Assembly (NCBI RefSeq): GCF_048128805.1 | Contig: NC_136019.1 | Coordinates: 11,146,905-11,210,904 of the forward strand | Source: Centroberyx gerrardi | Taxonomy: Eukaryota; Chordata; Actinopteri; Beryciformes; Berycidae | Direction of reading: 5' to 3' | Length of the DNA: 64,000 nucleotides | Shown here: positions 5,173-63,060 of the stretch, one piece after another | Layout of the letters: each line of letters starts with the position of its first letter | How positions within the stretch are numbered: position 1 is the stretch's first letter | Notes under the pieces: generated by a model | Seen by the model: only the letters and a program-made list of their open reading frames with translations | Told to the model about the DNA's origin: nothing | Database searches by the model: none | Made by a program: the position numbers and the translations under genes

Positions 5173-5344
5173 CCAGTGTCAGTTCATGTTCATGTTACAG
5201 AAACACTGTTGGGGATCCTAACCCTAAAAGGTTAACTGCAGGTATTTAAACAAACATAAAACATTTTAACATAAAACATCTTGGTCTTAATCATAGCTGT
5301 TTTTTTTTTTTACACTTTTCATGCATTCATTTGCAGTGTACTTC

Positions 5345-5388
<44 letters not shown>

Positions 5389-5411
5389 TGTGTGTGCGTG
5401 TCTGTGTGTGA
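5117..5411. repeat. Paired (TG)n microsatellites
   Basis: Two long TG runs, about 5117-5171 and 5348-5411, are separated by some 175 bp of ordinary sequence. Each has a few interruptions. No function is evident. Confidence 0.85.
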
Positions 5412-5989
5412 AGCCACTGCACTGTGACGTCTGAACGACTGCTAACAATCATGTTTACATTGGTTTTTATATGATATGAAGTTTATGACAGAAGGTTCAT
5501 GATGGCGTAACCCTTCTCCTTCAATGTGTGCCAGCGTGCCAAATGGAAGCTTTTATGGCTGTTTATGTTAGAACGGGAAAAGATAGATTGATTAGAGTAA
5601 ATAACAGCTATCACTTTCTATCACCAGTATTATGTGTGTCAAGGCATCATAAGATCTGACTGATATCTTGGTATTGAGGAGGCAGAGGGTCTGCTTTTCT
5701 GTCAGGGTCTGTATTGATGAGGCGAATGATGAGGCCCTTGACTGACTTTTACTACAAATTAATCATTCCTGCACTGGATCTGACTAACCTGATTTAATTA
5801 TGAATCATATTTGTATCATAAAATGCTCTTTTCTTTTCTTTTTCTCACACTATGTGGCAAACATTGCATCAGCTCATACTGAAATCATACCATTAGATAA
5901 TGTTTCACCCCAAACCACCAAGTCAATCGAGCCTTGATTTCCTAATCTTTGAAGTCATTTTTATAGCCTTGCTTTGATACAAGGATCTT

Positions 5990-6165
5990 TTGTTTATAGT
6001 TTTTGATCTTCCTTTTATCAATTACTTTCATGTTTCTTGCCCTACTTTTATATTTCTTACCTGGCTTGCACTGGTTTTGCTTTCAATTTTTCATTCTTTC
6101 AAGCACTTTTTAACACATTTTTAACATGCTAAAAAGTGCTATATAAATAAAGATTATTATAATTT
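5990..6165 (+). repeat. LINE (L2/Rex1-like) 3' tail relic
   Basis: Sequence ending in agtgctatataaataaagattatt has the form of an L2-like LINE 3' terminus on the + strand. A very similar stretch ends near 27885. No open frame is preserved. Confidence 0.45.
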
Positions 6166-6327
6166 TATATATTTAAAAAAAAACCCATCACACTTCCAGT
6201 TGTATGTCAGCTCCACTAATTAATAATATGATCAATATGATTGTATTATTAGTAATACTATTGTAATACCAGCTGAAAATCATCTGCGTCACTCTAAGGC
6301 CAGAGTTCAGCCTGCTCTTATCACTGT

Positions 6328-6560
6328 TATAAAACAGATGATTTCATCCCGCCTTTATTGTAAAACAGCAGCGACTGCCGGGAAGCCAGCAGGGATTTTA
6401 TATTTGATTCCTCTGCAGAAACGTTGCCTCGCCAGCTCAGAGGCCATAAAAAGTCCAAAGGTCAGGGAGACACAGAAAGGTAGAAATAAGTTGGACAGGC
6501 AGCGCCGGACGTCCAGTCTCCTCCACCAGCAGACCTGCACCTGCTCTCCTCCAGAAACAG
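6328..6560 (+). promoter_or_regulatory. Probable promoter and non-coding first exon of the SPRY gene
   Basis: A TATA box (TATAAAA, 6328-6334) is followed by a probable untranslated exon that ends in a good donor (aaacag|gtagg, exon end 6560). The next exon begins near 7243 after tctttctcag and carries the ATG at 7251. The start of transcription near 6360 is inferred from the TATA spacing only. Confidence 0.4.
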
Positions 6561-6962
6561 GTAGGACAACCAACAACCACGGGAACTCTGGGAATATTAG
6601 GACGGCATGTGTCTGATATGACCTAATGTGTAACTAACATATTTAAATTCTAATATTTTTTGGACATGTTTTTTGTTACTTTGATATCTGATACATTTTT
6701 AGTGTAAATGATTTTGTGTTGTGGGCACATTGGATGTTAAAAGGAGTTGGGAAAATTGGTCTGCTTTGTTTTTAATTGACATTCAGGTATCATTGACATT
6801 ACAAATCATTTTCAATGGTTTGGATTTGTCATAGGACCATGAAAGAAATTATTCACGAGGGATGGTGTCAGTTATTGTTTACAATGAAAGAAATAATGAA
6901 TTGTTGAGCGTATTTGTAACAAAATTCTCTCTTTATTTGGCAATACTGGTGGTTACTTCAAG

Positions 6963-7018
6963 GTTTCTGCTGGACAAAAGCTTCTATATTAGTTTCTGCT
7001 GGACAAAAGCTTTATGTT
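6963..7018 (+). repeat. Short tandem duplication of about 30 bp
   Basis: The 20-mer tttctgctggacaaaagctt occurs twice, about 30 bp apart, inside the first intron of the SPRY gene. It is a simple local duplication. Confidence 0.8.
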
Positions 7019-7250
7019 AGTTCTGTACAGCTGAAGTCGGCTGAAACTTTATCAAGGTTTTACAGTAACATTGTTTATGTCTCACAAAGAATAGCTGCCT
7101 TGCATATTTACACTTTATATTTGCTCTTAAAGTTTCTGTTTCATTTCTTATTTGTATAGGTGTGGTAAAGCTTGATTTAAGTGATGTTAAGTCATCAGAC
7201 TTCACAGCTCCAGGCATCTTACAAGTGTTTTCTCTTTCTCAGGAGTAAGA

Positions 7251-7913
7251 ATGCCACATTTCGAGATGAAGAGTATTCTGAAGAAAAGTAGGTGTTTTGC
7301 TTTATCCAACTATTGTTATACTGTTGCAACATTAGTGATTGATAATTTGGAACCTTTGCTCAGATCAAGTCTACGTGATGCGTGGATCTTAAATAATGTT
7401 CATATCATTCATGGATTAAATCCAAGCTGATATCAAGGCCATCCGTGTTAATAATTGCTTAGATTGTAGCTGTAAATGCTTGATGATGACATATTTCCAT
7501 AAGGACTTAGCCAACGAAGCTTATTCAATTTTCTTTGCTATTTGGAACGATTTATATCATCTAACTTGGATTTACTTCCTCTGTCTCACAACAAGAAAAA
7601 GTTTACTCTCATGTTTTGCTCATTTTCTGGACTTGCTCCATTCTCAATTGAAAGAGACAGTCAGCTATAAAGCCACATTAACAGTGACTTGGACAGCTGA
7701 AGCTCATCTCCTCTGCCTCTCTCTCTCTCCCAGAGCTGAGCTCGGACTTGAAGGAGGAGAGCAGCACCCAGAGCAGCTCTATCGGAGCGGTGCGCTGGAC
7801 CCTGCCGCAGGAGAGCACCACGGCCCACAGCTCGGCCCCCAGCAGGACCGCCAAGACTACACACTCACAGGTACAATACACATCTGTGCAGAGGAGCGCA
7901 CATGCACACACAC

Positions 7914-7952
<39 letters not shown>

Positions 7953-10391
7953 CACACACATGTACACAGGCTCACCAATGGTTTCAGTTTGTACTGTGCA
8001 GCTTTTTAAGGTGTGCTCTGCACGAACGCCACCAACACAACTTCCTGACTTCCTTCCTTCCTGATTTTCACTCTGACAAGCAAATCCAATTAATTTATTT
8101 GTTTGGTTGTTACTGATATTTCTCTCCTGTTATTGGTGTGTGTCGATATTCTGCTTGTGCGCTGCTCTGTTGAGGCTGAATGCATTTCTAAACCAATCTG
8201 ATGAGTTTCACATCTAGGTTGGTTATGAAATTCATAAAAAATCTATGAATATAAGTAAATACATTAAACATCACCTGTTGTGTGTCCTGCAGCAACATCC
8301 CCGTCAGAACGGCCTTAAGGATCTGCGCAGCCTTCAGGAGTGTGTCCAGTTCATCGAACACTGGAAGGAACAAGTGGACCAAGTCTGCAAGGTAGGATCC
8401 GAGAGAGAGAAAGGAAGGAAGGAAGGAAGGAAGGAAGGAGAACGAAAGAGAATGCAGACAGATCAAAGTCACTATTTAATCTCAGCGCTCTTTCAAATTT
8501 AATGATACATAATGAGGGCAAAGAACAAGGAAATAGACAGTAGAGAAATGCAGGGCTGATGTGCATCATGTGAAACCTGTAGACATGAGGAACCAGGCAA
8601 GGAACTCCAGATACTGATGAGGGTTTGCCCCATTTTCCTATAACCCTCAATTTCTTTTAATATAGAGATTATCATAGATTGCTGCCACCTCAGGAAAAAA
8701 AAGCAAACAAAACATTTCAGATGAGAGTCCATTGCTTGTGAACAGGCTATGAGGCTGACCAGAGCAGAAAACAAGGTGGTGTAACCCATCATGGTTGATC
8801 ATTTTACCTTGTTAAAAGTTCATAGGTGCAGATAAAGCTTGCAGATGTGCAGAAATTCACTTTAAAACCCACAATTGTGACTCAGCGCCAAGATAAAAAA
8901 AGACCCTTACTTAACAGGTAAGGGGTTTCCTCTCTGAGGTCGAACAAGTTTGGGCGAATGAGAGTTTATGAGCATAGAGATTATACAGGTCGGTTAAGCG
9001 TTGCTACGGGAAATGATTACTTGGTTGCTCATGCAGAGAGTGATGACGGAGTTAATTGAGTGGGTGGATGCTGATAGGATGCATGTCGTTGACTCTTTTA
9101 CAGCCCAGTTAAGTTACCCTCTGCCCTGTACGGGCTGGGGCAGGCAGGGTGGGCTCCAACACACAGCAGGTGTGATCTGATGGACGCTGTCGGAGTTACA
9201 TATGAGGTTAGAGGAGGGACAGGTTGTGAGAATGGAAAAACATCCCCATGTGGCCTATTTAACTGAGCTTTGACCCACAAATAGGCCACAGTTGGTGGAT
9301 TTTCTGACCAGAATGACCTTTTGAAATATGTAGCCTAACTATCAAGTGGTGTAAACAAAAACACCTGCTGCCCTATTTTACCGAGCTTTGACCGTAAAAC
9401 ACCTTATCCAGAGTGTATGATCCTGACTGACGCTGTGTTGTTGCTGCAGGGCGAGGTCGACCCGGAGGAGGGCAGCAGTAAGAAGGAGGCCCACAGCTCA
9501 GACCGGCGAGCTGAGCGCAGTCTGGAGGAGAGCAGGAAGCTCATCCTGGAGTGGGCCAGCGAGCTCCACCACGTCGACAAGGTCAGTAGATACACCATGG
9601 GACATGTGACAGGGTGGGGGTGGGGTGGGGGGGGGGTGGGGGGGGGTGGGGGGGGGGGGGGGTGGGGGTGGCACAGAGGCTGGAGAGACTGTCCTGTAAC
9701 TGAAAGGTCACAGGTACAGTCAGTGTGTTTCTACCAGCAGCGAGATACTGCTCACTCAGTGTTAGTCACTCTGCATACAAGCATCAACCAAATTCCTAAA
9801 ATGGAAATGGAATCATGCTTGCATTCATGATTTTTCCACCTAATATATTATGAAACATTCATCTCTGCCACATTTTCATCATTAGATTAAACTCAATTTT
9901 AATATATACCCAATAACCACACATCAAACTTTGCTTTTGAGGCAAAAACAACCATACTGAACTACACTCTTCTGTGTCCTCAGCTACTGAAAGAGACGCC
10001 CTGGGCGACAGACAGCTGTGAAAAGGAGACGGAACAAGAGGTGGACGCCAAAGAGGAAAAGCAAATGAGGATCATGGAGTGGGCCAAGGAGCTGCAGAGG
10101 GCCTCAGAGGTGAGGGGTGGAAAGACTTGAAGTAAATTCCAGGGGGAAACATGGTTGTCACCAGAACCCAGAGAGGCAAATTACATTTTGAATGGCTCTT
10201 CTGCTGTCTGGCCTGTAACTAGTAGGCACAGAGATCAAGATACCTAATAACTTCAATAATATATAGTAGATAGTGAGTTTACTGTCATGCCAACGGTTAT
10301 ATTCTCAGTGCAGGTGTCATGTTTTTGAAAAGGGCGGATATGCCCTTTTGGAAAAGGAAACAGTGTGAGATCATGCAGTTTATGTCGGTCT

Positions 10392-10598: not shown

Positions 10599-12396
10599 TG
10601 AAGGGTTTCACTCCAAAATGTTATATGTCCATTCTGGAAAAAAAAAAAACAACTTCCTGAAATTCATTCATCAATATTCTGTCCTCAGAAACAGAACTAT
10701 TTTGTAAGAAAGGGTTTTTAAATTAATCCTAACTTTAACCATAATGTGCTTTACTTTCATACCAACAATCTCTTTAGTAGAAGTCAGGTTTTAAAATGCT
10801 GGATATCACATTGTGGAATGAAACATGTTGACACGAATGTTACATTTGACACGTACCGCAGAGATGAACATCCCAAGTTATGAAATTTGTTGCTTTACAT
10901 AACTTGTGATATACTGATCCACACAGATTAGAGTGGACCCTGCTCTTTGGATGCATGTTCAATGATAGCATGAATAAATGAACATGGTGATAAAGTTTAT
11001 ATGACCATGATCTGCTACTGGACTGATGAACCCACTCCCATCGCTGTCCTTGTGCTAATAACTGGCAGTAAAGACTCAACAGATAAACTATCTGCAGATT
11101 CACAGATGATAGGAGGACAGGATTGACTGAAACTTCAAGAAATATTCTGTGGTTTTGTCTCTGGTTTCAGTTTGATTAAGTTCAGTTAGAGCACATACAC
11201 TTCAAATGACCTTTCACAATAACTCTTCCAGTAACAGTGAATTGCTTCTGGCACAAACGGTGAATCGCTTCTGGCTCTGTTTATACATGGCAATGACCTT
11301 TTGGCATTAATACAGTCATCACTCACTACAAAAACAGTGCAGTGAGACTGTTAGTTATTATTCCGATCATAAACCCTGTGGTGTCACCGTTAACAGCCTT
11401 ATCAGAGCATTCACTGTAAAGAGTCACTCTGTCCAACAATTTATTGCTTAGCTTCACACGCCAACCACACTGCCACAAGTAGAATTGAGGAATTAACACA
11501 CATTTTTTCTGTTTTTTTTTGTTTTTCTTTTCAGAGAATGATCCCACAGTTATGGCTGCTGGTGAAGCAGCGGACCTGGAAAGCAGGAACTCCAAGATAC
11601 ATCCCCAACTCAGGTGTGTGCTCATTTTAGAAAACATTTCCCTCAGTCAGTAGGACTTGTGCACAGCCTGAACTTAATATAAAACCTCCTTGAGCCTGAG
11701 CCAGCATGTAACGTCTGTTTTCTGGTTCCCGTTTGCAGTGTGGAGTTGGATTTCCAGTGCAGCAGGTAAGATCAACTTGCATTGAGAACAAACATTTTCT
11801 CATATTCACACAGCAGTGAGGCAATAGACATCACATTCACAACATGATGACCGTCTCTCCTCATCCTAACAGCTGACGTCATTCTTGACCCCATGACCAA
11901 CCACCCGTGGCTGCAGCTGTCGGACGACCAGCGCAAGGTGCAGGAGGGGATAACCATGTCCGAACTGCCGTACAGCTCGCAGCGCTTCGACAGCTGGCCG
12001 TGCGTGCTGGGCTGGGAGGGCTACGTCAGCGGCCGCCACTACTGGGAGGTGGACATCGCCAACAACGGCTACTGGCGCGTGGGACTGACCACCACCGACT
12101 CCAAGCGCCACGGCCGCTTCCCCATGACGCCGCAGCGGGGCTACTGGGCCCTGTGGCGCAGCACGCACCAGTTTTACGCATGCAGCAAGCCGGAGACGCA
12201 GCTGCCGTTGGGCCTCGTGCCGCGACGCATGGGCATCTACTTGGATTACGAGGAGGGCCAGATCTCCTTCTACAACGCCGACACCAAGTCCCACATCTAC
12301 ACCTTCACCGGGACCTTCAAGGGGAAGCTGTACCCGCTGTTCGCCCCGCTGGACGGGCGCACGCTCCTGACCATCATCCCGCCAAGTGGAGTTTAA
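7251..12396 (+). CDS. PRY/SPRY (B30.2) domain protein without RING or B-box
   Basis: Nine coding exons: 7251-7287, 7734-7870, 8293-8391, 9450-9581, 9984-10109, 10434-10562, 11535-11613, 11739-11765 and 11873-12396. They join in phase into 429 residues. The start MPHFEMKSILKK is the first ATG of its exon. Residues 1-100 are Ser/Thr-rich and low in complexity. Residues about 100-220 are charged and probably helical, with two related segments (ILEWASELHHVDK, IMEWAKELQRASE). A Leu-rich segment follows (LRLLGLKKKRLVNLLPLLEF). The last exon encodes PRY plus SPRY (LDPMTNHPWLQLSDD, RFDSWPCVLG, GRHYWEVDI, GYWRVGLTT, GIYLDYEEGQISFYN, PLFAPL). B30.2 domains bind protein ligands in TRIM and butyrophilin proteins, but the RING, B-box and Ig domains of those families are absent. 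No signal peptide or membrane segment is visible, so a cytosolic adaptor-like role is inferred. I do not recognise a named orthologue. Confidence 0.85.
7900..7960 (+). repeat. (CA)n microsatellite
   Basis: A long, nearly pure CA run lies in the SPRY gene intron, 30 bp after the donor at 7871. Confidence 0.9.
8408..8442 (+). repeat. (GGAA)n microsatellite
   Basis: About eight GGAA units lie just after the donor of exon 8293-8391. Confidence 0.85.
9612..9670 (+). repeat. G-run tract with G-quadruplex potential
   Basis: Nearly 60 bases consist almost only of G runs broken by single T bases. The tract starts about 30 bp after the donor of exon 9450-9581. The G-rich strand is the sense strand, so the pre-mRNA would carry it. 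Confidence 0.85.
10396..10430 (+). repeat. (GT)n tract forming the 3' splice site region of an SPRY gene exon
   Basis: An uninterrupted GT run reaches the acceptor cag of exon 10434-10562. It takes the place of the usual pyrimidine tract. Confidence 0.9.
10568..10594 (+). repeat. (AC)n tract just after the same exon
   Basis: An AC run starts six bases after the end of exon 10434-10562. It is complementary to the GT tract at 10396-10430 on the other side of the exon. Confidence 0.9.
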
Positions 12397-14498: not shown

Positions 14499-17400
14499 TC
14501 AGGACTCCCTCTTACAAGCCCAGGGTCCGTAGGCTTCACAGTCCGCCGCAAAGAGACTCCCGCCCCCCCTCAGGTCTGCACAGTCCCTGTCCTCGCCGTC
14601 CCACTCCACCTTCGCCCTGCCAGACACACACACACACACTGAAGCAGAAAAGTCTCTCTAATATGTCAGTTGACTGTGTATCAGCATCTGAATCCAAATC
14701 AAGTTTATCTGCAAGAATTTGAAGTGGTGTTTGGTGTGTGAAATATTTACATAAAGACAAGTGTTTAGATAAAACATAGGACTATAATATAAATTGAGGC
14801 TAGCATACAGTTGGACAGGACATGATTTCGACAACTAGACTATGATTTGAGCTAGACTGTACATTAGTGGTAATGTGTACATTTGACAATTAAAAGAAAC
14901 TTTGCAATAGGAGCATTTTTAATGATCACATTAAATTTGATTGTTTAATTGGTGTGGATCAGGTGTGTTACCTGACTGGTCCTTGTGGGTCAACCTAACA
15001 AATATAATGCGGTTTGCTCCCATTTCTGTAAAGAAAACCTGATGAAGGTCCTAGTACAGAAATGTTTTCAGTAAAAACGCTCAAATTGACCTACAGTCTT
15101 CTCCCCCCACACCTGTCGCCTTGTACTCAGGTGTGTAAAATCTCTATCGCTTAATGTCACATTTGAAAGATGAAATTTGATCTGGACTCACGGCATGTAG
15201 TGCTGGATCTCCGCCCCGTCCCGCCACAGCCACCGCCCCTCCTCCTTGGAGTCCGTCAGCCCCACCCACAGGAAGGGGAAGTAGGGGAACGTCCTCATCA
15301 CACCTTGAATAAACTCCTGCAGCAGAGGAAACATTTGGGATTCATTCCCAAAATGCTACAGACACATTTTGGAGCAAAATGTGTATTTATAGAAGTACTT
15401 CCGCTATGCCAGCTATCATATTGTCAGAAAAGGTATTAACAGTTCAAAGTGAAGGATATCTCACTTCATTCTATAAGGCTGGTAAAATACCACACCAAAA
15501 CCACATGATCTAAAAAGGTATGCGTTAGCTACACTATTATGGAAGTTAAGTCCCATTTATAAATTTGACCTTTTGGACATGGACCCTGTTTATTGTCTAT
15601 TTTGGTGTTGAATAGGAATGGATTTCTTGACTTGAACTCGACTGGGCCTGATCTTGGGACTGACTTGGACTCGACTAAAGTGGTTTTGATTACGGCCATT
15701 TGAAAAGTATGTTTTCTGCACAGTACCATCTCTGACCGGTCTGTAATCACAGCCAAGCTGCTGTTGTGTCTCTGGCAGAACTCGGCGCTCTCGTCCCACT
15801 GAAGGTTTTCCTCCAGTCCCACGGAGAAGAAGTAGCAGTGACCGTTCCACCAAAACCACCGCTCTGGACACACTCCGCACCTGGAGTCTGCACAGAACGG
15901 GACAGAGACCGTAACCGTACCAGAGGTTTAAATCGACACTATGTGACATTTTCATACAAGTACATTTACATTTTGCTTCTCTGTGTTACTAGTTCATGTA
16001 AAACAATAGCGATTCAATTGATACCCAGTTCATGAAAACCTTTACATTTGCTAATTTAAACACCCGGTAGCAGGTGGATCTTTCCAGGAAAAAAGTGATG
16101 CGTTTAACATTTCCGGCAGTAGCAACAGCGGTTTGTTTGGAATAAACAGAAGAAGAACTGGGTAGTTAGCATGAGCAGTGATAGCCACCACAACTGAACA
16201 GACAAAGAAAAGAGCGCCACCTGCAGAAGGTCAAACTTCATCACTAGAAACAAAAGAACAAAACGTCACAGTACTGGACACACTGTTTGATTGACAGGTG
16301 ATCTGTGGGAAGTGCAGTGCAGAAACACCACAGCAATGATTAAATAGCATCAAAGATGTAGCCAAAATAAAAAAAAACAAGAATCTTCGGTGTCTTGAGA
16401 TTAATAGTACCTGTCAACATTGTAAGTTTGTATTAGACTGCAGCAAAGCAATAAGCCTGAATGAAAAATACTGGAAACGAAGCCAGTAGATCTACTGAGA
16501 TATGATGTTTCACAGTGTGTCAGTGAGAGGTAAAAATGATAAAACCACCTCGAGTGACGGTGTGAAGCACCAGGTTCAGGTCTCGGCAGTCCTCCTGGCA
16601 TTGCTGCAGGTGTTTCCTCAACTCTTGTCCAGAACTGTTGGCGGTCTGATCCGTTTCTGCTGCTGCTGTCCTCATGGCTAACAAATCTTTAAAACAGATG
16701 TTGTACACAGTCCTTCAAGAATTTGGAGTGACTTTGACTTTGATTGATGGTCTGATTGTTTTAGATGGTTTCTTTGTGGTTTAAATAACTGGTGCTGTGG
16801 TGCACTTTAGATAAACAGAGGTACAGAGGTATTAATTGTAGTTTTATAGATGTGTTTATGCTTGACTGGCTGAATACTCACTAAGTAAAGCCAGAGTCAA
16901 AACAAGTCCAGTGACCAGGATGACTGCTGCCAAGGAAACAGCCACTCGAACCGCCAGCCGGCAAGTCGGACAGGACGCTACACAAACAAATGATTAACAG
17001 GATCTACTGTGACTGTAGGATCTTATAGCATGTTTTGGGTTTGGACTTTGTGCCTCAAACTTTGCCCGTCTGCCATCATTTGATAAAACAGAAAGTACAG
17101 ATGTCCACGTGCTGTTTCTTTGGCCAAAATGTAATCAATCAATCAATTGTAAAGATGTAAAAGAATCATGATGATAAACAACTGGAAGAAAGATATTCCC
17201 CTCTAACTGTGTTACGTTTACCCAAGACAGTGTTTGATGTTTTTTGTACCATTCTCTTCCTTGTTGAATTTTGTGATGGCATTTGTTTCTGTTGTTTTGT
17301 GTGGATGTTTGTCATATTGATTTTTCTTTTTCTTTTACGGGTGTTTACATGTTTCATATGTCCCTTTATAGGGCAGCACAAGGCACCAAGCACATGTAGG

Positions 17401-19512: not shown

Positions 19513-21955
19513 TAACAGACATGTAAGGTGAAGAGGAAGCTAAGGCGAGGAGAGACATTTGTACTCATGCTGTAAAATGTGTAATTAGCTCCGGACCGCA
19601 GTTGGATAGTATTGCCAGGTTGTCAGTCACATAAACATACTATATTGACTTTCAAATACTTTCCTGTGATTGTCTCTCTGGCGTTGTGTTGTCCTATGTG
19701 GCAAACCGCTGCCGTCCCATACTCAAAGCAGGTTAAAAGAAATTTGATTTGTTAAATTTGACCAAAGTGTGATTATCGCACCTGTTTGCTGTGATATCCC
19801 GACGGGCTCGCTGATCAGCCCCCCTGCCTTTGTTCGCACTTCAAAGTCATACTTGGTTCCTGCTTTCAAGCCATCAAACGTAAAGCTGTTGTTGCTACCC
19901 ACTTGGCGATTCCAGCTGTGGCCCCAGAAGTCGGTGCGGACATGGACGTCGTACTGGGCCGTCTGGAGCGCGTTGGTGGGGGCCGTCCACTTAAGAGTGA
20001 TGTGGCTTTTATTAAAGTATGTGATTTTAGGATCCTTAGGCGGCAAAGGCACTAAAAGGAAAGAGAGACTTGATCTTAGTTTTACTTCATTCGATTATTT
20101 CAAATGCCTTTTCAACAGCATCTATAATGCAATCTGGAAAGACCAAAGTCAAAACAAAGTCACTTACAGGTGAATTTGGAGCCGGCCACCGGCTGGCTCC
20201 TCAGATGCCCGTTGGCGGTGTAGACGGTCAGTGTGTAGTTGGCCCCGGTCTTCAGGCCGTCCATGCGCAGCGCATGGTCTGTGGTGTTCTCTGTCTTTTT
20301 GTCATCGGAGCCCATCGCCTGGAGCTCAACCATGAAATGTTCATGATTCCCCTCAGGAGCTTTCCAGGTAGCACTGATGCTGTTAGCGGTTGTGGTTAAA
20401 TTTAAACTCGAAATTGGTCCAGGAGCTACAGCCAGGAGAGAGAGAGGGGGGGTCAGTCAAACTATATGAGAGGGAATACCAAAACACTAATATCAATTTC
20501 TATACATATATCTATACATGTGTCAATATATATCATTTCTGGGAAAAAATTATGTTCATTGCTCAGTATTCAAAACATACAGATAATTACATGGCATGAA
20601 TTCATGTTACTATTTTACTCGACAGGGAATTTTACTTTCATGCCAGTAAAACAGTCACTGGGTCAGAGAAATTGTCATACTTTTTTCAAATGGTGGACAT
20701 CACCATTCACTTCACTTTGTTTTCCAGTAATCTCCTCACCAGCAGCAACTAGCAGTCACAGAGCTTTAACTACAGTGTACAGAGAGGTGAAATTGTAATC
20801 AATCAAGCAATCAATAGTCTATAGTCACCGGTGAAGCCGATGACGGTGACGGCGTCCCCCTCCAGAGAGCCATTGGCCAGTGCCGTGACGCTGAGCAACA
20901 GCTTGGTGCCCGGCTGCAGACTGGTCACCGTCACACTCAGATTCTGGCCCACTGTTTCCCTGTACAATTTTCTGTTAGGAAGAGAAACAACCGCCGCTGT
21001 CAGGTGAAACCCGCCGTGCATCTCCACAATGTCAACTGTTCAGACATGAAGGACTGCTGAAGTCAGACATGACGGCAGCAGGGTGGTGTGGTGAGCAGGG
21101 AGACCAGGATCTGCTCTACTGAAGTGGCCATGAGAGAGACAGTTAATACCAAATCCAATGGTGGTGTTTTGAATCTGAACCTATGCTTTTATCTCTTTGT
21201 GGAGAGGAGGCAGGAAAAAAGAGAAATTCCCAGCAGGGATCAATAAAGTATCACATTACTATTTATTATTACCAGAAAGAAAAGTGTGGAGAAACTGTTT
21301 GGAAACTGTTTTGAACTTCGGTACCCAGAAATCCTGTAATATAATGTCAGTAAACTGCACACGGCACGCTCATGTTTACCAACCCGGCCGGTCTGTGATG
21401 CTTCATACCAAGGGAAACCAAAGAGACGAGAGAGGCAAAGATCTAACGCTGGTGAGTCCAGCTTTCTCTGGACGGAGCGCTGCTCACTGCTGTTTAGGAG
21501 ATTTCACTCTTAAGTTTTGTTTTGTCACTTACTGTGGGTGAAGAAGTGTCCATAGAACAGCAATCCCAGTTGAAGCATTATAATCCCACTAATGGCTTTG
21601 TTTCTGTTTGCATTCTTTAAATTGAAGATGTCTCACTCTAAGTTTTACGTGAAGAGGGTGCAACAGTGGCTGCAACAGCTTTGTTGTGCGTCAGAAATGG
21701 TTGTGAACATGTAAACCTGTAATGTTGACCTGAGTTACAATGATTTCTTAAAGTTTCCAGATTATTTAGCATGCACACATGAAATGCTACAAGAATCACT
21801 GTGGATATACCTGAAATTCATATGGTCAAATAAATTCTGTACTGTGACTGTGAAGAAATATAACCATATTTTCTGACTGACATCAGTGCTTTTTTGGTTT
21901 CCATAAGCACCAAGGTCATGAAACCTATTCAGCACATAAAGGATCATGTAAACTC

Positions 21956-21997
<42 letters not shown>

Positions 21998-24900
21998 AAA
22001 GTGACTGAACCTACGTATTATTATTACTGCAGTCCACAGCTGTCACCCGGTAGCCTGTGGTGTTTCCCTCGGGTGGCTCCCAGGAAAGCTGCAGGGAAAT
22101 GTTCCGACTATCAGACACTGTCAGATTGGACACCGTACTTGGCTCTGGAGCAAAAAGAAGAAAGAAAATTATATTTATAACAGACTGAACAAAACCCTGT
22201 TTACTGTTAATCATCATGACCCCACCTGCAATAAGCAGTAAACCATCCTCCAAAAACCTCTCCTCATTTAAAACTCAACTAAATAAAGCTCACTGCTTTC
22301 TATCCCCACACTACACCGTGTACTTCCTTTAAATTCCCTATCATTTAATGGTATGAGTACTTTAATACTATTTTTGCAGCTTTTATTAATCTTTTCGTTT
22401 GGACACACCTGATTAAATGTACTATGTTTATGTTAAAGCCATTTTGATCTAAAAGCTTATGCTTAAATGTTTTTTTACACAAATATAAAGAGTGAAGTTG
22501 ATGCCTATGTATGAATTTCTTTCCAAAGCCTTTGCCTTTCCATCAAGGCAAAGGGCGGCTACTTTAAAGAATCTAAAATATAAGATAGTTTTGATTTGTT
22601 TAACACTTTTTTGGTCACTGCATAATTCCATGTGTGTTATTCCATAGCTTTGATGTCTTTACTGTTATTCTAAAATGTGGAAAATAGCAAAAATAAAGAA
22701 AAATGTGTTTGTCCAAATTTTTGACTGGTAGTGTACGTTTTATTACTATACTAACTACTTTTATTAGTATACTAACACTGATTTGAGCAACAATGGCCCA
22801 ATCAGTGGCCGCTTCACTCACTGGTATATGCTGTGGTGCTGACTCGTTCTGCCCATTCGGACTCGTCTTGGACTCCTGTGATGACATGAAACGTGTAAAG
22901 GCGTCCAGGTGTTAAACCGCTGACCTCTCTGTTCTCTGTGGTGCTACAAATCTCCAGGTCAGGTTGACCCCTGACCTCAATTTTGTAGAAATCCACGTTT
23001 CCAACTGGTCGACTCCACTTCATGGAGACAGAGGTTTCCGTTACCATGGTAACAGTCAGGTTGTGGACGTTCTCGGGCTCTGAAAGAAAGTGATAAGTCA
23101 TCGGGGTTACGAGCAAAGTCTTCTGCATCGATATTACTTTGTCTATTTAACTTCTATTCACTTCAGGTCAGTGAAAGTAAATTATATTATGGTCAATATT
23201 GGCATCATCTCTCCCACTATCAGCATCATGAACTGTGTTTGTAGCGGCACTTCCTCCATGAATGATGCAGGCACCCTTTGGACCAATCAGTAACAAGATG
23301 CATCATCCCTCCAAGTTTCATAATTGGACCAACAGTTATGGCAGTTAAGTTTGAAATTTAGACCTTTAATTGTAGCGCCCCCATCAGGCCAATCAGTGTA
23401 ATGTTTTTAAACGCCAGAACACAGTGACCAAATCATAGGGCAAAATGCATCATCCCTCCCAAGTTTCATCAAAATCTAGTCACCAGATTTCATCACATGG
23501 GGAACAAAAAACATTTGGGCTTACTTGGTTTTAAAGTGTTCCTGCAGAAAAATAGAAAAAACAGTAATGCACAGATGTTTTGGTACTCAAACAGGTTTTA
23601 GTCCACTGAGATTTCCAATAAAAGAAAAAGATCCTTTCTGTCCCTCTCCTTGACTCTTATTTTTATTTCTCTTTTATTTCTCTGGTCACAGGAATATTGT
23701 CGAGGCACTACGGCTCCTTTGACCCTTCCACTATTTGTTGCTTGTAATGTTGCAGAGTAAGAACTGAAGCGAGGCAAACTTACTGGTGTAGAAGGTGTGA
23801 GTCTGCGGGTTGAGGTCTCTCTCACACTTGATGGCGAACACCTGGACCGAGTAGAAGCTGCCTGCCGTCAGGTTGACGAGGTCATAGGTCAAATTACTCC
23901 GGTTCACTGTAAGGTTGAAGTCACCCTTGACCTCGACCCGGTAACTGCTGATGTTACCGGGCCCGGCCGACCATCTCAGAGCGGCGCTGTTCGAGGTCAA
24001 ATCGGTCACACTGATGTTGCCATTGAAACGGTCTGTGATGGGAAATAGGATGATGATTGTGAGCTCATGGGATGAGCAGGGATGTGATCAGGGACAAGTA
24101 AATAATAAAAAAGGAGGAAGGGTTTAAAGGGAAAATATAAAAACAGTGCGAATGAACATCAACTTAAATTCTACCCATTTGAAATTGCTTCTTTTATTAG
24201 GTGACGTTACAGAAAAGCTCATATTCTGGTGCAGTGCAAAGAGAGATGCACCCGAAATGTAGCTTTTTGCAGAGGTAGGGACTCGAGTCACATAACTTGG
24301 ACTCGTGTCAGACTTGTGTCATAATGTGAATTGCTTGAGACTTGACTTGTTGCATGAAGAGAATACTTGAGACTTGACTTGGGTTCTGGTGACTTGGGAC
24401 TTGACTTTGACTTGTACTTGGATGACTTGACTCAAGTCTTGACAAAACATCTTGTGTTTGTGTAAATGATTTGATTTGTTCTGACTTGACTTGCTGTTCT
24501 ACATTTAGACTTGAGAATTGACATTAATGACATGGACTTGACTTGGTAATCTACTTCTAGACTTGACTTGACTTGAGACTTGTGCCTCAAAGACTTGGGA
24601 CTTGAGGAAAGTTGACTTGCTCACACCTCTGGCTTTTTGTGCTGTGTGAAGTCAAAAAGAAGCAGGGAAGCAAGATGGTTTCAAAAGAGTCCTACCTTCA
24701 TAGCAGATATAGGGCAGAAGCTCCCAGCAGTCCCTCTCGACCCACGGCCCAAAGCTGAGCAGGGCCACACAAGCGTCTTCAACATACCCGTCCTCATCAT
24801 CACTAGTAGTAAGACTGCAAAAAACAGTAGTTGGTAGCTCTGTCGGCGTGACTGTCGTGGTCTGATCTGTGGAAGATCCCGTCGTGGTCTGATCTGTGGA

Positions 24901-27900
24901 AGATCCCGTCGCGGTCTGATCTGTGAAAGATCCCGTCGCGGTCTGATCTGTGAAAGTTCCCGTCGCGGTCTGATCTGTGAAAGATCCCGTCGCGGTCTGA
25001 TCTGTGAAAGTTCCCGTCGCGGTCTGATCTGTGAAAGATCCCGTCGCGGTCTGATCTGTGAAAGTTCCCGTCGCGGTCTGATCTCTGAAAGATCCCGTCG
25101 CGGTCTGATCTGTGAAAGTTCCCATCGCGGTCTGATCTCTGAAAGATCCCGCCGCGGTCTGATCTGTGAAAGTTCCCGTCGCGGTCTGATCTGTGAAAGA
25201 TCCCGTCGCGGTCTGATCTGTGAAAGTTCCCGTCGCGGTCTGATCTCTGAAAGATCCCGTCGCGGTCTGATCTGTGAAAGTTCCCGTCGCGGTCTGATCT
25301 CTGAAAGATCCCGCCGCGGTCTGATCTGTGAAAGTTCCCGTCGCGGTCTGATCTCTGAAAGATCCCGCCGCGGTCTGATCTGTGAAAGTTCCCGTCGCGG
25401 TCTGATCTGTGAAAGATCCCGTAACGTTCTGAACTGTGGAGGATTCCGTCGTGGTCTGAGCTGTGGAAAATTGCGTCGTGGTCTGAGCTGTGGAAAATTG
25501 CGTCACGCCGTTTCCCCCACACCCGCAGACGATGGAGTGGGCGCGAGGCTTGGCCACGGGCCGACCGGGGTACCAGTTCTGGAACGTGAGGGGATCCCCG
25601 TTGGCCCAGCGGGACCAGGGCATGGCGGGGCCGGGACCCGAGGTGTTGAGGCCCGAGGTGTTGAGGCCCGAGGTGTCGAGGCTCGAAGTGTTGAGGCTCT
25701 TGCGGAGGCCGATCCAGTAGTCAGAGCTGAGGTTCTGGACGATGGTCCGGATGTTGTCCGGAGTCAGAGTGACCAGATCTTTGTAACAGACCTGATGGGA
25801 CATGAGAGGTTAATTCAGGGTTTAAAGACGATCCACTGCAGCAGAAGTCAACAGTGAGATGTGGCCTTGATCCGGCTTGCTGCACTTCATACTGTGTTCA
25901 TTAGGGATGGGACGATACGCTTATCTCACGATACGATACTCGATATGGGGTTCACGATTCGATACAACCACGATACGATGTAATAAATAAAAGTTCAAAG
26001 ACAACAAAGTGTGACTGTGCAGAATTATGGTTATTTCTGAGCCACAAATCTTTCTAGCAATAGCACATTGGCTTGCTAAAATGTAAACAACAATTTAAAA
26101 ATGTCATTACAAAGTGTAAATAATATAATTTGGATGGAGAGCTTGTGAAATTGTGATGGGCGAGCCGTCTCATTTGTGATTACTACAGCAGAATAAAATG
26201 GAGCTAATATCGTGATTCATTGTTCTGCCCCACGATGCATATTTTTGTATTGCGATATATTGTATTTCGATATATCGTCCCATCCCTACCGTTCATATGA
26301 TGTCTTTGTTCACTTTTAGTGTCCTTCTTGAATTCATGTTTTTTAAATTTCTTACAGGTCAACTATATTTTATGCATTAAACACCAAACCAAGGCCGACT
26401 TCCATTTCTGTTTCATTAACAGTATACAATACAATTTCTCATCTAACAGAATGGCATATGAAGCTAAAAGCATTAACCTCACTAATAATTGCATTCAATT
26501 AATGACTACATTTCGCAATCTTGACAGGTCCACAGAATGAATGCCATATGGAAGAGTGTTGTTTACGCTCTACTGAATGCCAACATCTATTTTGACGATG
26601 CTATAATTCAATGCCCCACTACACATGAATGCCTTAAGAATTTTCAAATCCTGACACTTCCAATAAATATCTGTACACATTCCGGTCTCATTTTGTTTCT
26701 GTAAATAAAATAGCTGTACCTCGCAGTGGTTCCTGGCCTCCTCCCATGTGACGGCGCTGCTCTGGGGGAAGAACTCTTGCTCCGCTACGCAGCACAGCAG
26801 CATCGGAGCTGGGGAGAGGCATACAGAGAGGGGAAATAACATCAGGGGATCTCACAGGCAAATTTCATGGTTACAGCCAACTCCAAACCAAATTACAATC
26901 CATGAAAATGTGTCTTCATGCCCAAATCAGCAGGCATATTAATTTTCTCCAGTCTTCTGTAATATAGCAACATTTGAAATAATTTCTAGTTATCCAAGAT
27001 ATAGGAAGCATTTTTCTATAATCTCTACAGTATGTTAACATACAGAAGATACAACATACAATACAATACAATAAAATACCACTTATCAAGGAAATCCGTT
27101 TAAAATAAGTGCTGGAGAGCATCAATATGTAGAGATGTTTGGCAACTTGGTGACTGTAAGATTTCGATGAAGCCATTATTCAAATTGACTGTGGGTCAAA
27201 AGATTTAGGGGTCAGCCGATGGCTCATTTGTTTACTCTATGTGCTCAAACCTATGGTGTTAACCCCTAGTGCACAGTGCACATCCTCTATAACAGTGGAA
27301 AAGATACAATACACTAGTGTCTAGTTAACAACATTCATAGTGAAATTATCAGTCCAGTCAGTTTAGTACTGGTATAAAATGAATTGTTCAATGTATCAAT
27401 GTCCTCAGCAGTGGGGAGCATATAAAACAACATTCACAGGACTGTTTTCTGTCCGGTCATTTCAGATGTATTTACTGTATATACTATTTTAGTGTATACA
27501 ATCTTACATTATGCACATCAGGCACAGCAGTGAGCAACATAAAACAACAACAGGGTAGTGACTGGGTTATGAACATCTGTTCATAAAAAAAGTTGTCAGA
27601 CTTAAGTGATAAAGAAGTAATTGCACATCTATGCACTAATAGATATGCAACTGAAGTGAGTTCATGAGCTTGCATCAATGAATCAATGTAAATTTGCAGG
27701 CTTGTCTTTGTTTTATCGAATTTGCTTCCCCTTTTACTCTTGAATTAATTTCATGTTCTTATATTTAATCACTATTTCTTTTGAAGAGATTTTTCACTAG
27801 TATGCCTTTTTATGGTTTCCCTTAAAACACTTTAACTTGGCTTTAAAACAGTGCTATATATAACAATAATAATGAGCTTTAACGCTGCTGAGAAAAGAAG

Positions 27901-32044: not shown

Positions 32045-35000
32045 ATTCCCACCACATCCGCAGACAGAGACTAGACTTACTCCGGTGTCTCGAGGGTGAG
32101 GATGGTGAGGATGGGCCGGCGGTTCATGCCTCCCATGCAGGAGCTGTTGCACATGAAGTTAAGCAGGACCGTGGTGATCTCAGAGCCCAGCTGAAACACA
32201 CAACAAGTTTAATTTAACTGTGTTGCTGGTTGAGGGTACAGATCAAGCAACTGGAGAAAACAGGAATATAAGCTGAAGCAATATGGTAGACCCTTTAAAG
32301 ATATAAAATTAATACATCTATGACATGAATTCGTATTATACAGCCAATCTGAAACTATATAATTCTGAGGATGCCCAAATGCAAGCTTTTTGATCAAGAT
32401 CCCAATTCGACTTTTTCTGGGGACCACTTGGATCTCCTCATGGACCCCTTTAGGGTGTCCAGACCCTACTTTTGAGAACAACTTCAACATTACATTACAC
32501 AATACCATGACGTATACATGCAGGTGGCTTAAAGCAATATTTCAATTTGGGAGAATATTGTCTTTCACATGCCCAAATGATTTCAACTGCTGTAATTTAT
32601 GTATATTTACATTTTGTACTTAAAGTATGACTTTTTTTACTCATTTACAAAACAACAATAAAATGAGGGACGTCACTAACAGCAGAGTATCGGTGGCTGA
32701 GTGTTCATGAACTCATATGGGTTTATGCATGCTAAAAAGGCAAAAATGTTCTACCAAAGTGCCATATTGCTTAAAGTGTGCACTCCCTGGGAATTGTACA
32801 TGATGGTTAACATGATTACAGTGCTGTAGATACAAGAAATATGCAACAGTACCTGTGGAGGCTCGTAAGGCACAGTGACGCTCTGCCTCTTGGTGTGGAG
32901 ATCCTCCAGGTACTGGGCCCTCTGGCTGCCCTCCACCCGGATCAGATGGCTGCGATGCTCCACAACTAGACATGGAACAGGGATAAAGAATAAACTCTGT
33001 TGTGATTTCTCTCCTTATATTCATACAGGAGTTTAAAATGTGTAAAAATCCACATTCACATTCTTCCACCATACAGATTCACTGAAACACGCAGTCTCAT
33101 GTCACTTTTCTTACCATCTTCGTTCTGGTGGTGGGGGCAGCGGCGCACCACGTCGGCCACGTGCTCCGTCTTCTTGTAGACGGCGGTGGCCCTGAGGAGG
33201 GCACCCTGAGGAGGCTCCATGGCCACCAGCACTTCCACTGGGCAGGTCTTAGCAAGCTGACAATACAGCTTATTGAGCTGCACCGAGTACTGAAAGAAAG
33301 CAAAGGGAGAGAGAGAAGTAAGTTTACATATGAAGAGCAACCAGTTGTGAGGTGGAATGATAACAGCGGCAAGTTAAAAGTCAAGCACTGGTCTGAGATT
33401 TCGGTCTCAGACTCAAACCCAATCTGTAAAGATAAATCAACTCAAATAAATCAAAGTCTATTTCAATAAACCAAAAACGCTAAATAAATACACGCCAACT
33501 TCTCAAAACTCACAACTTCAAATCAACATTAAGACTAGATTCATCAGATTCAAAAGCTGTTTTTTGTACCTCTTTTTCGTCCATTTTTAACCCCGTCTGT
33601 GCTGGAGGAAGGGAGCAAAGGAACATGCCCCGTCATGTCAGAGCTGTGCTTTGCAATCAGCCTGCACCTCTCCAGAGACCACAGAACAAGTCGCAAGGGG
33701 TGGGACTTTAAAGGCAGAGCACCCTAACCTCTGACTACACCGACCAATTGTGGTGCGATGATGGGTGAGTCACCGTGGAAACCTTCCTGCTATTGGCTGT
33801 TCAAACACAGCGACTGGCATCTAGACCTTAAATTTTAGCGAATCGTCACAATGAATAAGATTTCACATGAATGCCACCATGAGAGATACGAAACAATGGA
33901 TTTTTAAAACGCCAAGGTAAGATGGTTCACTTTACTGATATATTATAAAAAAGTTATTGATCTCTCAGCAATTTCAAATCACTTTACTGTGGATGAAAAA
34001 AACCTATACGGTCAGTCAGTGGAATTTACTAGATTTCTTCAATTAACAAGAAAATTCATCAAATTCCTGTGTTCTTACGTTATTTTTAAATGGAGTGAAT
34101 TAAAACAACACCTGACAAGAGCAGAGTCTCTGTGTATGAGAATTACCGTATGGGAGTTACTGAGTTGAGCAGTAAATGGCGCTTCCAGCCTGGGAAGCGA
34201 CAGGAATCCCTTTTGTTTCTGTCCAAGTGTTCAAATAGCAGACTTCTGCTCTTTGCCGTGTTTGGTTACAGGATGAGCTGCAGCAACTCCTGTTAATCTA
34301 GACCTTAAACTGCACTGGGCCACAGCAAAAATACAGCCAAATGCTGGAATGAGCAAGTTCTTCTGATATTGAGACTGGTGATTTTAGATGATAAAAAGGT
34401 ATTAATAAAAATGATAGTGAAAGTGATCTTATAAGATAAGATAAGATATCACTTTATTAATCCCCTTGGGAAAATTCCGTTACTCAGAGTGAACGGCCAT
34501 AATGAACTGAGATTACTGGTAATTTACAACTGGAATAAATACACAAGTCAGTCCGTTTGAAAGTAAGAGGAATCGACAAATTAATTGAAACCAATTTAAG
34601 TTAAGTATTAGTGATTTGTAGAGCTCAGACCCATCAAGTTACTTGTAATATTACATAGCTGGCTAGAGTTACTCACTGTGCAAGTGACAGACTTGGCCAC
34701 GCCAGACTTCTGGAAGCGGAGCTGGAAGCCGAAATCCCCAGGATAGTCAGTGGTGGTCGGCACAGTGGAGGCCGGGGGAGTCAGGCTGTCCGTAGGAGAC
34801 ACATCAGGGGGCAACTCAAACAAACGCTCATCAAAACCTTCGGGGAGAGTGGAGTCAGGAATGAGCTGTGGGAGAGAGGAACAAGAGAGTCAGTTATCTG
34901 CCAAAAAAACCCAATGGTGCCTACTTGTTTTTTGAACTCATAAATATAGACAATTATCAACTGATGTAAGGCTCTCTCAAAACAACAATTAAACTAAATG

Positions 35001-48300: not shown

Positions 48301-51300
48301 CTCAGTCCATGCTATCTTTGGCTTGGACATTGTAATAAAAAAAAGAACTCTAGATGTCCAATACTCTAAGTCATGACAGATTAGTGTCTCCTTTCTACGT
48401 CTGCAGGGATCCAAAATGGATCCCTGTGTCCAGTCCCAGTCCCAGTCATTCAGGAGGAACTTGGCCCTGGTTGTTCCTCGTCGACCCAGTTTCCCGCTGT
48501 AACCCGAGCCTGGATGCAGACCGGGCCGCAGCCCACAGCTCCCACTGATTGAAAGCGGATCCTAATGGAGCCGGCTGCACTGTGTTTAACTTGGGTGCAG
48601 TCGGGACAAGGTGGTCCTCAAAAGGCAGAGGTCACCGGTGTGGCTGGGAGAGACAGCGGGAGCTTTCAAAGTGCTTTAAATGTGCATCAGCAGAAGCCTG
48701 CAGATTAAAGTTTTGTCATATTGTGAGAGGAGAGGTGCAGCCATAGAGTTCCCCATTAACAGACAATCTTTATGTAGCTTTGCCTTCCTATGGGAAGAGA
48801 GACTGGTGCAGAACATGAAAGAGACAAGCATGAAAGGAGGCTTTACAATTTGTTTTACTAGATGAAGTGTTGGAAGTAATTAATTTTGACTGTGTACTTT
48901 TTTAGTGTAGGTAGTGAGAATCAACCTCCTGCCATTGTTATTGCCAAGCTGTAACTGCGCTACACAGCACTGGAAAGTAACATTTGCAATAAAACAACTT
49001 TTTGGCAGGACTGTTCATGATCACAGTCTAAAAACAGCTTCAAGTAAAATGGAAAGATCCCAACCTTGCCAGCAATAGTCAATCTGGCAAAGTCAAGTGT
49101 TCCAGTATATGGATCTGTCGTCTTTGTGCCTGGTTGAGTGTTGACATTAAGAATTTGATTACCTGCTCCTTCTACGTCTGCTGTGTCACTGAAACATACT
49201 TTCCATAACATTTTCCTTTTTAAACAGAAGGAACAGCTACTGATTGCAGTTAGGAACTAAGCAACTGACTGAAGTCTTCTTTGTTTTTGTGTCACACTGC
49301 CCTCTGGAGGCTAAAAGATAAAAATATGAATGTCTTTTCAGTAGTAAATGATGTGTAGTTCAGGTTGTGCACAGGTCAAGGAAAATTGGAAAGGTTTTAC
49401 ACACATCTAAAATATCCAAAATACATCTATCAGCTTAATTACAAGTGACACGTATATCATTGATCGGTCAGTAAGTCCACTTCCTCAACTGCCACCACAT
49501 ATGTAGCTTTGTATAACGTTCATCCTCTGAATGTTAAAAAGTGTACGTTTACTGTACCATTGAATGTACATTTTTGGGGAAAAAAATCATTACCCGAAAT
49601 GCATCATTCAATATCCGATCTGTAAAAGCACTGTGTCAACCCAAGACTTAAGCTACCAACAGTCTTTATCATTATTTGTTTCAATTTTGTGCTATTCATT
49701 ATTTTGTAAGAATGGGTGTTATTTTTTCAAATGGTTGGTATCTCATCTTGCTCTTCAAATGCTGAGACAACTTCTTTTCATCCTGGCAGAGTTTTAGATC
49801 ATGTTCTTTTCCTGGATGATAAATGACAAGCTTTGTTCCAAAATAAGACATCCATCGTTACAAATGTGACACCTACTCTGATAAAATGATTGCTGGCATG
49901 AAAATAAAATTCATTATTGAATATTACTGAAGTTAATGGCTCCTTCTTGACCCATTCATTTATGAAATAGTCACATTTAGGATAAAATAAAACATCAAGG
50001 ATTCCTGTGAGTAAATTGGGTGTTTTTGAGGATGTAATCATCTGTATTTTCATCATTTGTATTGAACAATGATCATCAGGTGATATGTAATATGTGGATA
50101 TGTTTTGGAACTGAATTATTGCAATGATGCTTGTGTGTGTTTTTCCAGGAGGAAAGCGATGCTCGTAAACAACCTGTTTGCCTTCATTGGTGGAGGGCTG
50201 ATGGGAATGTCCAAGGTCAGTCGCTCCTTCGAAATGATGATCCTCGGACGCTTCGTCATCGGCGCCTACTGTGGTGAGCAGTCCGCTGTTCTTTATCTCT
50301 TTTTTTGTTGCTTTGTTTTCTTCTTTCTTTTCTTTCTTCTTCTTTGTGATCTTTGTTGTTTCTTCAAGCTAAGCAAGTTGATGACAAGTGCAAGACAACA
50401 TACGAGTCAGATCAGTATTTATACTCATGCAGTATATTATTTCAAAATGCATCATTTGTAAAGGATTAAGAGAAATATCCTGGAGCAAGAAACAGACAGG
50501 TTACATGATCCAGTCCCTTACAGGGAGACTGACCTTCTAGCAATCTCTCTTTAATTCTACCATTAAGCACCAGTGGATTCTGGGTATTGTCTTCTTCACT
50601 GTGATTGACAGATAAAATGACACCATCTGATAAGAATTATTTGCAGCTACTGTTTGACCAAGATCTGACCAAGCCATTCTTCAGTCGGTTACCTCCCTTG
50701 TGCCTTAAAGGGACACTCGTCTCTGTGTCTCACCTGACCTGTCCTCTCTCCAGGTTTGGCATCAGGCTTGACGCCCATGTATGTGGGTGAGATTGCTCCC
50801 ACCAGCCTGCGAGGGGCGCTGGGCACTCTGCACCAGCTGGCCATAGTCACTGGCATTCTCATAGCACAGGTATGACCGCACACTGTGGTATCCATGGTGC
50901 AGAAATCATAATGAAAAGGTTGGAAGCCATGTAAAGGGTGAAAATGTATTAAATGCTTGGAAAGTGCAAAACAATAAAGAACAAACAACACAGTGATAGG
51001 CTTCTATACTACACGCAGGTTAAGCAACGCATTTCAAGCTTAGCACTCTTCTCAGGCAGCATATAAACAATGAATACATTTTCACCCTTTTGCATTTAAG
51101 TGGCTTCCCCAGAGAGAGGCTTCTTCATATTTTTTGAATTATCTTTTTATGAAAAGTCTTTTTATCTTCATCTCATGCTGTTATGTGTGTCTTCTCTGGC
51201 TGTGTAGGTCCTCGGTCTGGAGTCGTTACTGGGCAGCGAGGACCTGTGGCCCGTCCTGCTGGGGGTAACTGTTCTGCCCACGGTGCTTCAGATGGCGCTG

Positions 51301-52437: not shown

Positions 52438-52483
<46 letters not shown>

Positions 52484-62934: not shown

Positions 62935-63060
62935 ACTCGCTGTCGGTACACTTTTGCTCCTGTGTCCCCTCCCTCCTGCTCTCTCCAAAACTTTGCTCTC
63001 CACCACGGCTAAGTTTTTATCCCGACATCCCCACGGACTGCTGGCCTGAAGCCGCGCCCT

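What the first reader, a model, noticed from the sequence alone, without database searches (positions are those of the whole stretch)
24696..25791. A coding minisatellite has expanded inside the fold of a C-type lectin domain
The exon encodes the start of a C-type lectin domain (DYWIGLRK, WANGDPLTFQNWYPG), then 24 nine-residue Thr/Ser-rich repeats, then the rest of the same domain (EDACVALLSFGPWVERDCWELLPYICYE). The array occupies the long loop, the part that carries the ligand-binding site in this fold. Mucin-like repeats normally lie in stalks between domains, not within one. Array length could vary between alleles and push an O-glycosylated arm from the binding face. The splice frame and the conserved end of the domain argue that it is expressed, not debris.
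Basis: partly seen in the sequence, partly recalled or inferred. Interest (0 to 1): 0.85.

Follow-up and report, generated by a model that had tools for sequence, protein, structure and literature searches.

The report
Repeat array inside fish lectin domain
A fish gene carries 24 copies of a 27-base repeat in the middle of a C-type lectin domain, in frame and free of stops, but good splice signals on both sides mean that cells may cut the repeat out, so whether it becomes protein can only be settled with RNA.

Summary
In detail: on the minus strand, 24 in-frame 27-bp units (25500-24853) interrupt one C-type lectin domain between its NW motif and second conserved cysteine, in exon 25791-24696. 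Pfam sees two pieces with the array (27.0 bits) and one continuous domain without it (31.5 bits). Fibronectin III exons follow, the architecture listed in Fugu as CFN3.
The interval is also stop-free, 3 x 236 nt, with coding-like codons, though other arrays can show this too.
My preferred reading is an exitron-like optional segment (0.42); rivals are an ordinary intron (0.30) and an always-translated array (0.25). The splice pair matches neither intron position that I read in other lectin domains of this genome. The usual calcium motifs are absent, so a sugar-binding arm is unlikely. The searches found no paralogue of either domain half. RNA would decide.

The parts
26720..26808 (-). Exon 2 (first part of the lectin domain, ...QEFFPQSSAVTWEEARNHCE; the start reads like the end of a signal peptide, inference), enters in phase 1, leaves in phase 0
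   Evidence: acceptor score 8.3, donor 4.3; joins in frame to exon 3
24696..25791 (-). Exon 3, unspliced form: rest of the lectin domain with the array inside; 365 codons plus one base
   Evidence: acceptor 6.88 and donor 8.4
25523..25791 (-). N-terminal half of the domain (DYWIGLRK ... NWYPGRPVAKPRAHSIVC)
   Evidence: Pfam match together with exon 2
25637..25697 (-). Second, 15-bp repeat (4.1 copies) in the same half of the domain, with three N-glycosylation sequons between WIGL and NW
   Evidence: TRF; sequons at P0001 residues 34, 44, 49
24853..25500 (-). The 27-bp array, 24 units, main types GSFTDQTAT, GTFTDQTAT, GSFRDQTAT
25521..25522 (-). Candidate splice donor GT (CTGCGG|gtgtgg), phase 2, before the array
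   Evidence: matrix score 7.35, rank 69 of 3889 GT on this strand
24815..24816 (-). Candidate splice acceptor AG (ctactgttttttgcag|TC), phase 2, after the array
   Evidence: matrix score 7.85, rank 138 of 4151 AG on this strand
24815..25522 (-). Candidate exitron or intron, 708 nt = 3 x 236, no stop codon in the reading frame
24696..24814 (-). C-terminal half of the domain (LTTSDDEDGYVEDACVALLSFGPWVERDCWELLPYICYE)
   Evidence: aligns to the PLA2 receptor (VED.C...W..RDC...LPYIC)
23784..24032 (-). Fibronectin type III exon 1
   Evidence: Pfam fn3 45.3 bits; splice sites
22822..23079 (-). Fibronectin type III exon 2
   Evidence: Pfam fn3 48.9 bits
22015..22144 (-). Fibronectin type III domain 3, first part
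   Evidence: Pfam fn3 28.5 bits
20829..20971 (-). Fibronectin type III domain 3, probable second part
   Evidence: phase-compatible splice sites only, not scanned with Pfam; inference
20168..20425 (-). Fibronectin type III exon 4
   Evidence: Pfam fn3 40.8 bits
19782..20051 (-). Fibronectin type III exon 5
   Evidence: Pfam fn3 42.3 bits

Best explanation
The array is an optional, exitron-like segment. A 27-bp minisatellite has grown inside the loop-coding stretch of a CFN3-type gene (one C-type lectin domain followed by fibronectin III domains) for which no paralogue was found. Splicing from 25522 to 24814 removes 708 nt in frame and leaves a complete lectin domain; when the segment is kept, 236 extra residues, Thr/Gln/Ala-rich and probably without a stable fold, loop out between NW and the second conserved cysteine. 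Shown: array, frame, bracketing splice-like sites, matching phase, completeness of the domain without the array. Inferred: that both forms are made, that the long form is translated, and that the loop tolerates it.
For: Donor 7.35 and acceptor 7.85 fall within the range of the other sites of this gene model (eight acceptors 6.3-11.3, eight donors 4.1-8.6); those sites are my own choices, not confirmed by RNA. In ten long open frames from the same genome (16,620 nt) 0 of 9390 overlapping windows hold such a phase-matched pair at this spacing; the product estimate is 0.0019, before allowing for cut-offs set at the observed scores. The spliced protein is one continuous Lectin_C match at 31.5 bits against 27.0 in two pieces unspliced. 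Three of the four exitron marks given in PMC4494720 (main text read) are met: length a multiple of three, no stop, G+C 49-58% in bins over the array against 29-39% in eight of nine bins of the preceding intron. Codon use in the segment's unique part is coding-like: 0 of 157 intron or intergenic windows reach it.
Against: The fourth mark, prevalence of synonymous changes, is not met: 13 of 16 distinct changes among units are non-synonymous, where about 30% synonymous is expected for random change. The 157 control windows were not matched for open frame or G+C, so many fail because of stops; and frame 2 of our segment scores nearly as well as frame 0 (3.0 against 4.1 bits). Arrays elsewhere can look coding: of 126 frames in 21 array rows (about 16 distinct arrays, one of them, in L037, probably coding), 30 are open and 6 score at least as high as ours. 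The pair is not at the intron position read in two type II lectins (phase 2, before the NW-like W) nor in mannose-receptor-type domains (phase 1, Gly after NW, 4 of 6 loci), so it would be a new intron. The splice matrices are recalled textbook frequencies, not trained. The exon also holds a stray strong donor (24787) and acceptor (25578). No RNA was available.
Confidence: 0.42

Rival explanations
1. The array lies in an ordinary intron (25522-24815) that is always removed; its open frame is an accident of a 27-bp period and the protein is a plain lectin-fibronectin III protein.
For: Splice pair of ordinary strength in matching phase, rare by chance in open frames of this genome; domain is complete without it; most changes between units are non-synonymous; 30 of 126 frames of other array rows are also open.
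Against: A multiple of three by chance is 1 in 3, and stop-free by chance 0.07-0.43 depending on the model; codon use unlike any of 157 unmatched intron or intergenic windows; G+C like the exon, unlike most of the preceding intron; not at either lectin intron position read here.
Confidence: 0.3
2. One reading: the array is always translated, and the lectin domain carries a permanent 216-residue repeat arm inside its fold.
For: Exon open over 365 codons with good outer splice sites; a second repeat of 15 bp lies in frame in the N-terminal half of the same domain, so this exon does tolerate repeat growth; 140 of the 150 lectin-domain hits scored in the genome cover nearly the whole profile in one piece, two of them with a stop inside, so an uninterrupted exon is normal (counted by hand).
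Against: The bracketing splice pair; none of those 140 hits spans more than 387 nt, so none has a long insert, though such a domain would tend to be missed, as ours was, and only 150 of 471 candidates were scored.
Confidence: 0.25
3. Assembly artefact: the array length or its presence is misassembled.
For: Near-identical units (19 core units of only 5 types) are hard to assemble.
Against: Diverged end units and intact unique flanks on both sides in one frame; the window lies in a 25-Mb contig.
Confidence: 0.03

Closest known systems
CFN3 of Fugu rubripes (PMC514892, one table row)
   Same: Listed as a protein with CTLD and FN3 domains, as here
Mannose-receptor family (group VI) C-type lectin domains: FcRY (IgY receptor), CD206, PLA2 receptor
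   Same: The three best-scoring kinds of solved sequence (E 1.5e-7, 0.00067, 0.0027; selectins follow at 0.0033); the C-terminal half aligns to the PLA2 receptor as VED.C...W..RDC...LPYIC
   Different: Single lectin domain with fibronectin III exons, with an insert, and other intron positions than in the six such loci read here
Exitrons (PMC4494720)
   Same: Stop-free, 3n, G+C-rich interval between splice sites inside a coding exon
   Different: Synonymous changes do not prevail; splicing not shown; filled by a minisatellite
Coding minisatellites in lectin stalks, e.g. locus L037 in this genome
   Same: Long tandem array in an open frame of a C-type lectin gene
   Different: There the array lies in the open frame between a membrane-like segment and the terminal lectin domain; here it lies inside the domain

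Membership tests
C-type lectin-like domain (Pfam PF00059) | Profile match above the curated cut-off over the whole domain | tested here: met
   31.5 bits against 22.6, positions 2-106, interval removed; 27.0 bits in two stretches with it
C-type lectin-like domain (Pfam PF00059) | Four conserved cysteines and WIGL motif (recalled rule) | tested here: met
   NHC, EDAC, RDC, YIC and WIGL present
Calcium-dependent sugar-binding lectin | EPN or QPD in the long loop and WND (recalled rule) | tested here: not met
   RPV and WVE at these places
CFN3-type protein (lectin domain plus FN3) | Lectin domain and fibronectin III domains in one gene | tested here: met
   Pfam fn3 above cut-off in five of five scanned downstream stretches, compatible splice phases; that they form one transcript is inferred
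CFN3-type protein (lectin domain plus FN3) | Orthology to Fugu CFN3 | not testable with these tools
   Fugu sequence not held
Exitron | Length a multiple of three | tested here: met
   708 nt
Exitron | No stop codon when retained | tested here: met
Exitron | High G+C | tested here: met
   49-58% in 100-base bins over the array against 29-39% in eight of nine bins of the preceding intron, 47% in the ninth
Exitron | Prevalence of synonymous substitutions | tested here: not met
   3 synonymous of 16 distinct changes between units; between-species data not available
Exitron | Alternative splicing observed in RNA | not testable with these tools
   no RNA data

The most novel reading that the evidence does not exclude
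One lectin domain is made in two forms, a short one and one with a 236-residue, length-variable, possibly glycosylated loop growing out of its fold, and the choice is made by splicing of a minisatellite-filled exitron.
Probability: 0.4. Interest if true: 0.7.

Novelty: new variant of a known kind. Interest (0 to 1): 0.5.

Why it matters
Coding tandem repeats usually sit between domains (general knowledge). One inside a folded domain would show how far a lectin loop can be stretched, and a minisatellite whose inclusion is decided by splicing would join two sources of variation, repeat number and isoform choice. If instead it is an ordinary intron, the case is a warning that an in-frame array in an open exon is not proof of a coding repeat.

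Tried and rejected
AlphaFold2 on the whole exon without an alignment: mean pLDDT 65.3, strands stacked along the repeats (residues about 103-314), both lectin halves mostly below pLDDT 50. Perfect repeats often give such stacks (recalled), so I drew nothing from it and ran no fold search.

Inherited-intron idea: the type II lectin next door (donor after 15192, acceptor before 14616) and L032 both have a phase-2 intron, in L032 just before its NW-like YW, and mannose-receptor-type domains have a phase-1 intron in the Gly after NW (4 of 6 loci had a donor above 6.5 there; L065 showed only a matching phase-1 acceptor and L062 neither). Our candidate pair is at neither place, so I rejected inheritance. 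At the second place our gene reads CCCCG|gtcggc, score 4.08, phase 1; no acceptor above 3 other than 24814 lies between the array and the second conserved cysteine. Units of the array do hold weak acceptors (3.1-5.6), so splicing into the array cannot be excluded.

Selection test on units: 3 of 16 changes synonymous, little power. Paralogue test: neither half has a convincing relative (next hits E 0.76 and 0.57). The nearest FN3 matches are a run of exons at C4:21.64-21.67 Mb; no lectin domain was seen by eye among open frames of 50 or more codons in the 6 kb fetched next to it. Array relatives: of the 20 loci I examined ten with TRF and found other units; in blastn against all loci then fetched, the only other matches (65-67% identity) were to the one array around L014. 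Rfam gave nothing. Papers, listings only unless said: 'exitron' with 'minisatellite' 0 papers; 'long loop region', CTLD, insertion, tandem repeat gave only PMC514892; minisatellite, C-type lectin domain, repeat, coding gave 2, in one of which, by passages, a bacterial repeat protein is capped by a lectin domain; searches listed nothing that I took for this case by title. The library holds open-licence papers only.

Full report
What is there. The window is 64 kb of a 779-Mb assembly, C23:11146905-11210904; gene content and genome size suggest a teleost (inference). On the minus strand lies a gene with a lectin-domain exon pair (26808-26720 and 25791-24696) and downstream fibronectin III exons: five of five scanned stretches match Pfam fn3 above the cut-off, with compatible splice phases. 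I did not look systematically for its first exon or its 3' end. The 27-bp array has 24 units at 25500-24853; the end units (QFSTAQTTT, ESSTVQNVT, GSSTDQTTT) are diverged and the 19 core units are of five types that mostly alternate S and T at position 2, which explains the 54-bp row. A second, 15-bp repeat in the same exon (25697-25637) holds three N-glycosylation sequons.

The domain is one. Without the 708-nt interval, exons 2 and 3 give a single Lectin_C match, 31.5 bits, positions 2-106; with it 27.0 bits in two stretches; exon 3 alone 18.3 bits. The nearest solved sequences are of the mannose-receptor family: FcRY (E 1.5e-7), CD206 and the PLA2 receptor, with selectins close behind. The four usual cysteines and WIGL are present; EPN and WND are replaced by RPV and WVE (motif rules recalled), so calcium-dependent sugar binding is unlikely. 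Exon 3 has four further cysteines, at P0001 residues 2, 89, 91 and 325; 91 and 325 flank the repeats and could pair at the base of the arm if it is made (inference).

The splice question. Scoring every GT and AG on the strand with recalled vertebrate matrices, a donor at 25522 (7.35, rank 69 of 3889) and an acceptor at 24814 (7.85, rank 138 of 4151) flank the array. Ten acceptors and nine donors of my models of this gene and the neighbouring lectin range from 6.3 to 11.7 and from 4.1 to 8.6; they are not confirmed by RNA. Both candidates are in phase 2; the interval is 708 nt; the spliced reading is AHSIVC-G-LTTSDDEDG, 158 residues with exon 2. In ten long open frames of the same genome (16,620 nt; their coding status not confirmed) none of 9390 overlapping windows had such a pair, a donor of this strength within 72 nt and an acceptor of this strength within 85 nt at this distance in the same phase; product estimate 0.0019. 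Against this: the cut-offs were set at the observed scores, the exon holds two other strong stray sites (24787, 25578), and the matrices are untrained.

The coding question. The segment is free of stops, with chance 0.07 to 0.43 by model, and its length is a multiple of three. Its unique part scores as coding-like (4.1 bits; neighbouring halves -8.2 and 8.6), and none of 157 intron or intergenic windows reach it, but these were not matched for open frame, and our frame 2 scores nearly the same, 3.0. In 21 array rows with periods divisible by three (about 16 distinct arrays, one probably coding), 6 of 126 frames score as high and 30 are open. Changes between units are 13 non-synonymous and 3 synonymous: no sign of purifying selection, little power. 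The degenerate unit 25 differs from unit 24 mostly at third positions (8 of 9 third, 5 of 18 others); units 1-3 against the consensus show the opposite, so I give it no weight.

Relatives. The searches found no convincing paralogue of either domain half. Of 150 scored lectin-domain hits (of 471 candidates), 140 run from profile position 6 or lower to 99 or higher in one piece, two of them with a stop inside, the longest spanning 387 nt; ten are partial (counted by hand). So none of the 140 has a long insert, but a domain broken by one would tend to be missed, as this one was. The two type II lectins that I read carry a phase-2 intron, in L032 before its NW-like motif; mannose-receptor-type domains carry a phase-1 intron in the Gly after NW in 4 of 6 loci read. 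The candidate pair matches neither.

Weighing. The splice pair speaks against constant coding, the open, 3n, coding-like segment against a plain intron, and an optional segment accounts for both; that is why I rank it first, at 0.42, with 0.30 for a plain intron and 0.25 for constant coding. These numbers rest on my own priors. Exitrons are described in PMC4494720 (main text read, part 1 of 2); CFN3 is one table row of PMC514892 (abstract and passages read).

Noticed in passing
L037 (C11:814300-824200), array 5295-8036: A lectin gene with a 1307-codon open frame that holds a membrane-like segment near its start, a 63-bp tandem array of 43.6 copies and a lectin domain at its end: a probable coding minisatellite in the stalk position.
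   Followed up: partly
window 14502-16993, minus strand: Next-door type II lectin gene: membrane segment, stalk and a lectin domain in three exons with a phase-2 intron. The stretch with its first domain exon gave a weak Pfam match below cut-off, the last domain exon none.
   Followed up: partly
window 32700-35000, minus strand: Open frames that read like tumour protein p53 ([24 protein letters not shown]...); identity recalled, not searched.
   Followed up: no
window 50000-56700 plus; 59800-63200 minus; 11851-12393 plus: Open frames that read like a GLUT-type sugar transporter, a Y-box protein and a SPRY/B30.2 domain; identities recalled, not searched.
   Followed up: no
window 53718-55247, minus strand: 510-codon open frame that reads like a LINE reverse transcriptase; recalled, not searched.
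   Followed up: no
window 24290-24610: The intron right after the lectin exon holds degenerate GACTTG-like repeats, so repeats lie next to the exon as well.
   Followed up: no
C14, C1, C19, C6, C7, C3 of the assembly: Nine of the ten loci examined with TRF also hold an array with a 27-bp period, with other units (two groups share a unit); this may reflect that the loci were found with a nine-residue repeat.
   Followed up: no
exon junction 26720/25791: The domain's first intron (HCE|VCYKDL, phase 0) is at none of the intron positions that I saw in the lectin loci read, which hints at intron gain in this gene.
   Followed up: no
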